A stretch of 64,000 nucleotides of DNA from Okapia johnstoni (Eukaryota; Chordata; Mammalia; Artiodactyla; Giraffidae), in the NCBI GenBank assembly GCA_024291935.2, contig CM044312.1, forward strand, positions 76,961,001 to 77,025,000, written 5' to 3'. The stretch's first letter is position 1; each line of letters starts with the position of its first letter. Shown here piece by piece: positions 20,230-44,128 of this stretch. The position numbers and the translations under genes were made by a program. The notes beneath the pieces are model-generated. The model ran no database searches and was not told where the DNA came from. It was given only the letters and a program-made list of their open reading frames with translations.

Positions 20230-20317
20230 AATTCAGCTTAAGGGACATACCAATTTAGCTTAATGGGCATATGAATTCAGCTTAATGGGCCTATCAATTC
20301 AGCTTAATAGGCCAGCA
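20230..20317. repeat. Four 22-bp direct repeats in LTR U3
   Basis: Exactly phased units start at 20230, 20252, 20274 and 20296, each beginning AATTYAGCTTAA. Units two and three differ at only about three positions. Such arrays in retroviral U3 regions often act as enhancers; that role is inferred here. Confidence 0.88.
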
Positions 20318-41615: not shown

Positions 41616-41619
41616 AATG

Positions 41620-41974
41620 TGTTGTAGGAAAGGCGGGGGGGGGCGCCCTCCAGGGCCCCAGGAGTGGGCTCTTGTCTAACATTAGGAAAAGAATTCTCTG
41701 AGGAGACATGTGCTGACAAAGCAAGAGACTTTATTGGAAGAAGGCACTGGGGCAGAGAGCAGCAGGGTAAGGGAACCCAGGAGAACCGCTCTGCCACGTG
41801 GCTCACAGTCTAGGGTTTTATGGTGATGGGATTAGTTTCCGGGTTGTCTTTGGCCCATCATTCTGATTCAGAGTCTTTCCTGGTGGTGCACGCATCGCTC
41901 AGCCAAGATGGATGCTAGAGAGGGATTCTGGGGAAGTGGACGGACATGCGCTATCTCGTTTTGACCTTTCCTAA
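41620..41974 (-). mobile_element. Left LTR arm of palindrome
   Basis: Minus-strand LTR. U5 lies at 41620-41729, AATAAA at 41730-41735, an R-like segment to about 41805, and a CATAAAACCC TATA-like box near 41813-41822, followed inward by U3-like sequence. The CCCTTACCCTGCTGCTCTC block is shared with the right arm. Confidence 0.6.
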
Positions 41975-41987
41975 ACTCCTCCGGTTG

Positions 41988-42263
41988 CTGCTGCTGCTGC
42001 TAAGTCGCTTCAGTTGTGTCCGACTCTGTGCGACCCCCATAGACGGCAGCCCACGAGGCTCCCCCGTCCCTGCAATTCTCCAGGCAGGAACACTGGAGTG
42101 GGTTGCCATTGCCTTCTGCAATGCATGAAAGTGAAAAGTGAAAGTGAAGTCGCTCAGTCGTGTCCGACTCCTAGCGACCCCATGGACTGCAGCCTACCAG
42201 GCTCCACAGTCCATGGGATTTTCCAGGCAAGAGTACTGGAGTGGGTTGCCATTGTCTTCTCCG
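41988..42263 (-). mobile_element. Bov-A2 SINE in the LTR palindrome
   Basis: Reverse Bov-A2 dimer starting with (CTG)n and ending TTGCCATTGTCTTCTCCG. Flanking repeats are ACTCCTCCGGTTG (41975-41987) and ACTCTTCTGGTTG (42264-42276), 11 of 13 identical. It inserted after the LTR structure formed. Confidence 0.9.
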
Positions 42264-42276
42264 ACTCTTCTGGTTG

Positions 42277-42578
42277 ATGGTGGCTTACTAGTTCCGTATT
42301 CCTTACCAGGACCTCCTGTCATAAAACAACTCATGTGGATGGTTATTAGTGAGCCTGTCCAGGGTGGGCGATTTCAGTGTGCTTCCCCTAACAACTGAAA
42401 GAAGCTCTCCTGGGTTCCCTTACCCTGCTGCTCTCTCTGTTGGTAAAAGGCCTGGGTGCCTTCTTCCAATAAAGTCTCTTGCTTTGTCAGCACGTGTCTC
42501 CTCAGACAATTCTTTTCCAAGTGTTAGACAAGAGCCCTCTCTTGGGACCTTGGAGAGGGCCCCCCCCTTCCTGCAACA
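42277..42578 (+). mobile_element. Right LTR arm of palindrome
   Basis: Plus-strand LTR with a CATAAAACAAC box near 42321, CTCTCCTGGGTTCCCTTACC, AATAAA at 42468-42473 and the U5 end CTTCCTGCAACA. It is longer between the TATA-like box and the shared block than the left arm, so the two are not exact copies. Confidence 0.62.
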
Positions 42579-42582
42579 AATG

Positions 42583-42949: not shown

Positions 42950-44128
42950 TGTTAGTCAGCTCAAGCCACCATAGCAAAATAGATGGGGCAACTTTAGTCC
43001 AAGATCAAGGTTCCTTGCTAATTTGATTCCTAGTGACATTTTCCTCCTGGCCTGCAGGCAGCTGTTCTATGTCCTCATATGAAGGAAAGCAACAGCCCTA
43101 GTCTCACTTCCTCTTCTTTTTTTTCTTTTTCTGGATTTATTAAGATAGACTTGATACATAGTATTACATAAGTTTAATGCAATACAATATATTATCGTGT
43201 AATGTTAACACACACGAACAACATATTGATTTGACATACTAATATATTACAGAATTGATTACCACCATAGCATTCGCTAATACCTACATCACATCACATA
43301 ATTACTGCTTTCTTTTGTAGTAAAAACATTTGACTTACTCTCTTAGCAACTTTCAAATATATAATACAGCCTATTAACTATAATTACTATGTAGTATATT
43401 AAGCCCCTAAAACTTAATCACCTTATACTGGAAGTTTATGTTGTTTGGTCAACAATATCCCCTACTTACCTTCTCCCAATTTCCAGCCCTTGGTAACTAC
43501 CTGGTAACTAGCTTCTATGAGTTTGGCTTTTTAGATTCCACCTGTAAGTAATACTATAGAATATTTGTCTTTGTCTAAACTTATTTCACTTAGCATAATG
43601 CCCTCTAGGTCTAGCCATGTCATATCCAAATGGCAGGATTTCTTTCTTTTGTAAGGCTAATTAATATTCCATTATGTATTGACTTCATATATCAATATAA
43701 TTGCATGTATTATACTCACATCACTTTAATCTCTTCATTCATTGACTGACACTTTGATTGTTTCCATATTTTGCCTATTATGAACAATGCTGCAATGAAT
43801 ACGGGAGTGTGGTTATCTCATAGATATCCTGTTTTCATTTTCTTTGGATATATAACCTGAAGTGGGATTGCTGGATCATATGGTAGTTCTGGTTTTAATT
43901 TTTTGAGGATTCTCTATACTGTTTTCCACAGTGGCTATACCAGTTTACATTCCCATTCTCTTCTCTTCTCTTCTTATAAAGATACTAATCCCACCACGAG
44001 GCCACACCCTCATGGGCTAAGCTAAACCTAATTACCTCCAAAAGGGTGTACCTCCAAATACCATCACATTGGGAATTCGGGCTTTAACATAAGAATTTTG
44101 GAGGACATAAATATTCAGTCCACAATAG
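42950..44128 (-). mobile_element. MST/MLT-type MaLR LTR split by L1
   Basis: Two parts (42950-about 43115 and about 43956-44128) are collinear with a reversed MSTA/MLT1-like LTR: TGTTAGTCAGCTCAAGCCAC, AGTCCAAGATCAAGGTTCC, CTATGTCCTCATATG, then after the L1, ATACTAATCCCACCACGAGG, CCATCACATTGGGAATTCGG, GAATTTTGGAGGACATAAA. It inserted long before the ruminant SINEs. Confidence 0.75.
43117..43955 (-). mobile_element. L1 LINE 3' fragment inside MaLR LTR
   Basis: T-rich start (reverse poly(A)), then reverse L1 3' sequence with TTCACTTAGCATAATGCC, TTTGATTGTTTCCATATTTTG, GAAGTGGGATTGCTGGATC, TACTGTTTTCCACAGTGGC and ACATTCCCA. CTCTTCT-like sequence occurs on both sides and may be the target site. 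It is diverged, an L1M-like older subfamily by feel. Confidence 0.82.

What the first reader, a model, noticed from the sequence alone, without database searches (positions are those of the whole stretch)
41616..42582. LTR palindrome with two U5-type ends and a 4-bp direct repeat
Both outer ends are the same R-U5-like LTR end in opposite orientation, sharing about 180 bp with an estimated 80-85% identity by eye, each with its own AATAAA. AATG borders both ends. A normal provirus or solo LTR has one U3 end and one U5 end. This looks like a DNA with two U5 ends integrated as one unit, for instance an aberrant or autointegrated viral DNA, or a later inversion. A Bov-A2 in the centre shows the structure is not new.
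Basis: partly seen in the sequence, partly recalled or inferred. Interest (0 to 1): 0.75.

Follow-up and report, generated by a model that had tools for sequence, protein, structure and literature searches.

The report
Retroviral insert with two U5 ends
An ancient virus fragment in a ruminant-like chromosome carries the same viral end on both sides, and a second fragment of the same shape sits elsewhere in that genome, so it is probably the fossil of a mis-made viral DNA that was still inserted rather than a later scramble.

Summary
The inverted arms are 82% alike with gaps (91% without), both outer ends are U5 ends (...CAACA), and AATG flanks both. But the anatomy is asymmetric. Left arm plus centre (41620-42393, minus strand) is one complete ~485-bp LTR, split by a Bov-A2-like SINE with its own duplication. 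The right arm (42398-42578) is only R-U5 of a second copy, starting near the predicted transcription start, the content of strong-stop DNA. Most other copies read are ordinary LTRs with one U3 and one U5 end; 28 of 53 keep an exact 4-bp duplication. A genome search for the joint found one more palindrome, L081 on contig C5, with exact GTTT outside both U5 ends. The two palindromes belong to different LTR subfamilies, so they arose separately. Best reading: a viral DNA with two U5 ends was made before integration, by joining the U3 end of one copy to an R-U5 strong-stop piece, then integrated as one unit. Letters kept at the joint (ACT; AC in L081) match the unprocessed U3 terminus, favouring reverse-transcriptase jumping or end-joining over integrase self-attack; this step is inference. 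The search saw only joints near R; controls for other positions did not complete.

The parts
41616..41619 (.). AATG, left copy of the 4-bp target-site duplication
   Evidence: the family duplicates 4 bp in 28 of 53 copies
41620..42393 (-). complete LTR, U5 end at 41620, U3 end at 42393 (about 485 bp without the SINE)
   Evidence: contiguous in other copies of the genome
41620..41792 (-). R-U5 part of that LTR (left arm)
   Evidence: R start placed 28-29 nt after the TATA-like ATAAAA; predicted, not measured
41988..42263 (.). Bov-A2-like SINE inserted in U3, duplication 41975-41987 / 42264-42276
   Evidence: name recalled
42394..42396 (+). ACT, reverse complement of the AGT that stands between the G run and the LTR: letters of an unprocessed U3 end
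   Evidence: AGT in 4 of 4 copies that have a G run upstream; alternative reading in the text
42397..42397 (+). single G, not assigned to either partner; would be the extra C of a jump at a capped RNA end
   Evidence: inference with PMC6885630 section 9
42398..42578 (+). R-U5 of a second LTR copy (right arm), ends ...CAACA
42437..42449 (+). 13-bp insert in the right arm, not seen in the copies whose stretch was printed
42579..42582 (.). AATG, right copy of the 4-bp target-site duplication

Best explanation
It is the remnant of a viral DNA that had U5 at both ends before it entered the chromosome. During reverse transcription the finished but unprocessed U3 end of one copy (ending ...TAACA-ACT on this strand) was joined to the R end of a minus-strand strong-stop product (R-U5), most likely by reverse transcriptase jumping from end to end at the capped 5' end of a genomic RNA. 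Integrase then processed the two outer U5 ends and inserted the molecule, duplicating AATG. If the first part was a whole provirus, LTR-LTR recombination later reduced it to one LTR; it may also have been an LTR-sized DNA from the start. A SINE later inserted in U3. Shown: the anatomy, the exact U5 ends, the 4-bp repeat, a second case in another subfamily. Inferred: the joining step, the part of the cap, the order of events.
For: Exact AATG outside both U5 ends; U5-flank pairs from different loci agree in 4 of 4 letters in only 1.6% of 2756 pairings. Second palindrome L081 with exact GTTT outside both U5 ends; there the flank of the inner U3 end (ACAG) matches GTTT in 0 of 4. The two palindromes lie in different subfamilies, 100/96 and 100/99 support, and each has both arms in one subfamily. 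ACT at the joint equals the letters between G run and LTR in 4 of 4 G-run copies; chance 0.0185 by local base make-up; L081 keeps AC. The right arm begins 28-29 nt after the TATA-like box position. MMLV reverse transcriptase jumps at capped RNA ends and leaves mostly one extra C (PMC6885630, abstract and section 9).
Against: The 12 letters at the joint can also be read as ACTG flush with the U3 end plus a 13-nt deletion; L049 has a similar deletion and L062 has ACTGAAAG in full. The flank of the inner U3 end (ACTG) is 3 of 4 like AATG. R's first 8 letters match single copies in only 3 to 7 of 8. The searches demanded R within 30 nt of the U3 end, so closeness to R is partly built in. The left U5 end of L081 reads TATTG, one substitution from TGTTG. 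The transcription start is predicted. Sister relation of the arms is unresolved (AU p 0.43 and 0.42).
Confidence: 0.58

Rival explanations
1. Integrase self-attack: the processed U3 end (CA) of one viral DNA was inserted into the LTR of a second viral DNA in the same complex, leaving two U5 ends that then integrated into the host.
For: The letters after CA can be read as LTR sequence (ACTG...) if a 13-nt deletion is allowed, as L049 has; in L081 the letters after CA also resemble R with one change. Autointegration of retroviral DNA is known (a reference to it was seen; detail recalled).
Against: Needs a deletion in the window copy and a mismatch in L081, and takes ACT/AC as chance. A second viral DNA molecule is needed, since attack within one molecule would not leave two free U5 ends (reasoning).
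Confidence: 0.17
2. Two host insertions: a plus-strand LTR was there first, the minus-strand LTR inserted into it, and a deletion then removed the first LTR's U3, perhaps through the shared TGTT at both LTR starts. Or an ordinary solo LTR with a changed duplication lies beside a fragment.
For: ACTG matches AATG in 3 of 4; 13 of 53 family copies show 3 of 4. TGTT begins both the U3 end and the inverted U5 end.
Against: No remnant of U3 in the left flank. The deletion must stop exactly at both LTR starts, and something equivalent must have happened again in L081. The right arm begins with no host letters between. Both arms are of one subfamily in both cases.
Confidence: 0.14
3. Later inverted duplication or inversion of one LTR within the chromosome.
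For: L043 shows that inverted duplication near such an LTR happens in this genome. The sister relation of the arms is not rejected (AU p 0.43); in the first set of 27 LTRs the left arm was the right arm's best match.
Against: The flanks are a direct AATG repeat, not inverted, and show no notable inverted similarity (score 26; ten shuffles gave 15 to 32). The copy would have had to stop exactly at the U5 end, twice. In the wider set the right arm is nearer to L040, L030 and L031.
Confidence: 0.07
4. Assembly join of two unrelated LTR stretches.
For: Inverted repeats can be misassembled (general knowledge); no reads were examined.
Against: The arms differ at 14 of 160 letters, the SINE has its own duplication inside one LTR, the outer 4-bp repeat is exact, and a second locus has the same build.
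Confidence: 0.03

Closest known systems
Ordinary LTRs of the same family in this genome (no Repbase or Dfam name available here)
   Same: Same LTR, same ends TGTTAGGGG...CAACA, 4-bp duplication
   Different: They have one U3 end and one U5 end; here both outer ends are U5 and the U3 end lies inside
Autointegration products of retroviral DNA (recalled; only a reference seen)
   Same: A viral end joined to viral DNA in inverted orientation
   Different: Such products are, as recalled, unintegrated circles; this one sits in the chromosome with a 4-bp duplication, and its joint fits an unprocessed end better
Template switching by MMLV reverse transcriptase at capped RNA ends (PMC6885630, abstract and section 9)
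   Same: End-to-end jump with one extra C at a capped end would give the single G seen here
   Different: Shown in the tube with oligonucleotides, not as germ-line inserts
Local inverted duplication at L043
   Same: Palindromic arrangement around the same LTR family
   Different: There the host flank is part of the inverted repeat and the outer ends are not two U5 ends

Membership tests
solo LTR of this LTR family | one complete LTR with TG...CA ends | tested here: met
   41620-42393 aligns end to end with ordinary copies once the SINE is left out
solo LTR of this LTR family | exact target-site duplication directly outside its U3 and U5 ends | tested here: inconclusive
   AATG at the U5 end, ACTG at the U3 end, 3 of 4 letters; 13 of 53 family copies show 3 of 4, control 7%; for L081 it is 0 of 4
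insert with two U5 ends | both outer ends are exact U5 ends | tested here: met
   ...CAACA at both; in L081 one end has one substitution
insert with two U5 ends | duplication of the family's length outside both U5 ends | tested here: met
   AATG/AATG; L081 GTTT/GTTT
insert with two U5 ends | empty site with a single AATG in another species | not testable with these tools
   no related ruminant genome is held (one search says the genome has no relatives here)
strong-stop joint at the cap | right arm begins at the transcription start | tested here: inconclusive
   predicted from the TATA-like box; no RNA 5' ends available
ERVK-type LTR such as bovine ERVK[2-1-LTR] | 6-bp duplication (PMC10924933, passages) | tested here: not met
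   4-bp duplication in this family

The most novel reading that the evidence does not exclude
The reverse transcriptase of this ancient virus jumped, more than once, at the capped RNA end between strong-stop DNA and the U3 end of finished viral DNA, making molecules with two U5 ends that integrase accepted; such U5-U5 fossils are an overlooked class of germ-line inserts and keep the letters of ancient reverse-transcription errors.
Probability: 0.36. Interest if true: 0.75.

Novelty: new variant of a known kind. Interest (0 to 1): 0.58.

Why it matters
Retroviral DNA normally integrates with one U3 and one U5 end. Germ-line inserts with two U5 ends would show that integrase can use a U5-U5 pair in a living animal and that a mis-joined product can be inherited. 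Because the joint keeps its letters, a survey of such palindromes could show where reverse transcription goes wrong in nature rather than in the tube. Routine repeat annotation would probably list such a locus as two adjacent LTR pieces and so hide it (expectation, not tested).

Tried and rejected
A family LTR that itself contains the inverted repeat: rejected. In the ordinary copies read, left arm and centre run on to the U3 end and stop there. The searches scored only 40 of 6341 and 40 of 1912 candidates, so this is a sample of the family.

Right arm as a recent copy of the left arm: not supported. Among the first 27 LTRs the left arm was its best match (91.25% against at most 90.5%); in the wider set L040 (92.0%), L030 and L031 are nearer; sisterhood is not rejected.

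Right arm as a subfamily marked by its 13-bp insert: no printed copy has that insert (in one search the stretch was not shown for L009, L018, L019, L022 and L027).

More joints: exact pattern, 1 hit, the window itself, reversed control 0. Looser pattern, 79 hits against 14 for the reversed control; all 78 others were fetched; 3 of 78 match the family at E 1e-4, of which L074 and L129 are ordinary LTRs and L081 is a palindrome. Third pattern, 24 hits against 7 reversed; besides the window and L081, 22 were read: 7 ordinary LTRs, 15 without family match at E 1e-3. Controls for joints at other places of the LTR did not complete, nor was a search with the joint as DNA query.

Viral contigs: 0 matches to one 26-base word. 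Rfam: nothing at the locus. Paper searches listed no paper on a germ-line insert with two U5 ends that I could recognise from titles and abstract starts; this covers an open-licence library only and only the listed rows.

Full report
Observation. The window is G000:C9:76961001-77025000 in a 2.38-Gb genome; its SINEs look like Bov-A2, which points to a ruminant (recalled). The inverted arms are real: 81.8% over 181 columns, score 209 against at most 29 in 500 shuffles, and 146 of 160 letters without gap columns. The outer ends are TGTTG... and ...CAACA, with AATG directly outside each.

Anatomy. Searching the whole element in its own genome gave copies in which query 1-378 and 649-778 are contiguous. 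Read out, the 27 copies L002-L028 are LTRs of about 485 bp, TGTTAGGGG-like at the U3 end and mostly CAACA at the U5 end. L002 is longer because it also carries a SINE. So in the window the left arm plus centre is one complete LTR on the minus strand (41620-42393), split by a SINE (41988-42263) with its own 13-bp duplication, two mismatches. The right arm is only R-U5, on the plus strand.

Family control. Over 53 distinct copies, the 4 bases outside the two ends agree fully in 28, in three letters in 13, in two in 2, in one in 6 and in none in 4. Flanks of different loci agree fully in 1.3% and in three letters in 7% of 2756 pairings (20 and 10 of 37 in the earlier set). L031 and L043 were dropped because they have no complete LTR. 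The U5 flank of one locus agrees fully with that of another in 1.6%. So AATG outside two U5 ends is unlikely by chance. The letters after the inner U3 end, ACTG, also match AATG in three of four, so an ordinary solo LTR with one changed base cannot be excluded from the window alone.

Second case. The joint of a U3 end with inverted R was sought genome-wide. The exact form occurs once, in the window. A looser form has 79 hits against 14 for the reversed control. All 78 others were read; 3 carry this LTR family, and one of these, L081 (C5:39386308-39386954), is a second palindrome: complete minus-strand LTR at locus 209-691, R-U5 up to 855, GTTT before the left U5 end and GTTT after the right one. 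Its left end reads TATTG where other copies have TGTTG, so that boundary assumes one substitution. The flank of its inner U3 end, ACAG, matches GTTT in no letter, so there the solo-LTR reading fails. Its arms agree in 143 of 163 letters. A third pattern gave no further case.

Independence. In the tree of 59 R-U5 pieces both arms of the window fall in one subfamily (100/96) and both arms of L081 in another (100/99); the bootstrap had not settled. Whether the arms of one palindrome are sisters is unresolved (AU p 0.43 for the window, 0.42 for L081). I read this as two events, each with both arms from one viral subfamily.

The joint. In the window the letters between the U3 end and TCTCCTGGG are ACTGAAAGAAGC. 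Reading one: ACT is the reverse complement of AGT, which stands between the G run and the LTR in 4 of 4 copies with a G run upstream (L006, L024, L033, L059), so it is a U3 end before integrase processing; then one G; then AAAGAAGC, the first letters of R, 28-29 nt after the TATA-like box, matching single copies in 3 to 7 of 8 letters (55 copies). In L081 the kept letters are AC, one of them shared with R, and R begins 4-5 nt later. Reading two: the joint is flush with CA on ACTG of the LTR, followed by a 13-nt deletion; L049 has a similar deletion and L062 has ACTGAAAG in full. Reading one needs no deletion and also suits L081, so I prefer it; the letters alone do not decide.

Mechanism. R-U5 is what minus-strand strong-stop DNA contains (established knowledge; the step is named in passages of PMC12789967). 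MMLV reverse transcriptase switches templates more readily at capped RNA and then leaves mostly one extra C (PMC6885630, abstract and section 9); it also tails blunt DNA ends (PMC5288710, passages). A jump between a strong-stop product and the U3 end of a finished viral DNA gives a molecule with U5 at both ends. The unassigned G at 42397 would be that C on the strong-stop strand. End-joining of the same two ends is an equally simple variant. None of this was observed directly.

Limits. The patterns demanded R within 20 or 30 nt of the U3 end, so closeness to R is partly built in; control searches for other places did not complete. Other joint types would have been missed, so two cases is a lower bound. 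No other ruminant genome could be read. The transcription start is predicted. The element was not dated; its arms differ at 14 of 160 letters.

As RNA the stretch folds into a long hairpin (z -15.8 against 20 shuffles); this follows from the palindrome and is no evidence of function.

Noticed in passing
L081, G000:C5:39386308-39386954: Second U5-U5 palindrome of the same LTR family, in another subfamily, exact GTTT outside both U5 ends.
   Followed up: yes
L043, locus positions 1181-1236 and about 1797-1852: Local inverted duplication that takes in host flank and part of an LTR of the same family (read by eye).
   Followed up: no
L031, G000:C28:29438085-29438251 and upstream: R-U5 preceded by a stretch that looks like env coding sequence instead of U3 (by eye); only R-U5 and a few letters before it match the LTR.
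   Followed up: no
L002, G000:C13:72002877-72003626: Another copy of this LTR family, other subfamily and other host site, with a Bov-A2-like SINE at the same place in U3 and its own duplication; perhaps an insertion hot spot.
   Followed up: no
window 42437-42449: 13-bp insert in the right arm, source unknown.
   Followed up: partly
window 43795-43898: Sub-threshold Rfam match to mir-6130, 42.2 bits against a gathering score of 117; probably chance or a repeat.
   Followed up: no
window 20230-20312: Tandem repeat of 22 bp, 3.8 copies.
   Followed up: no
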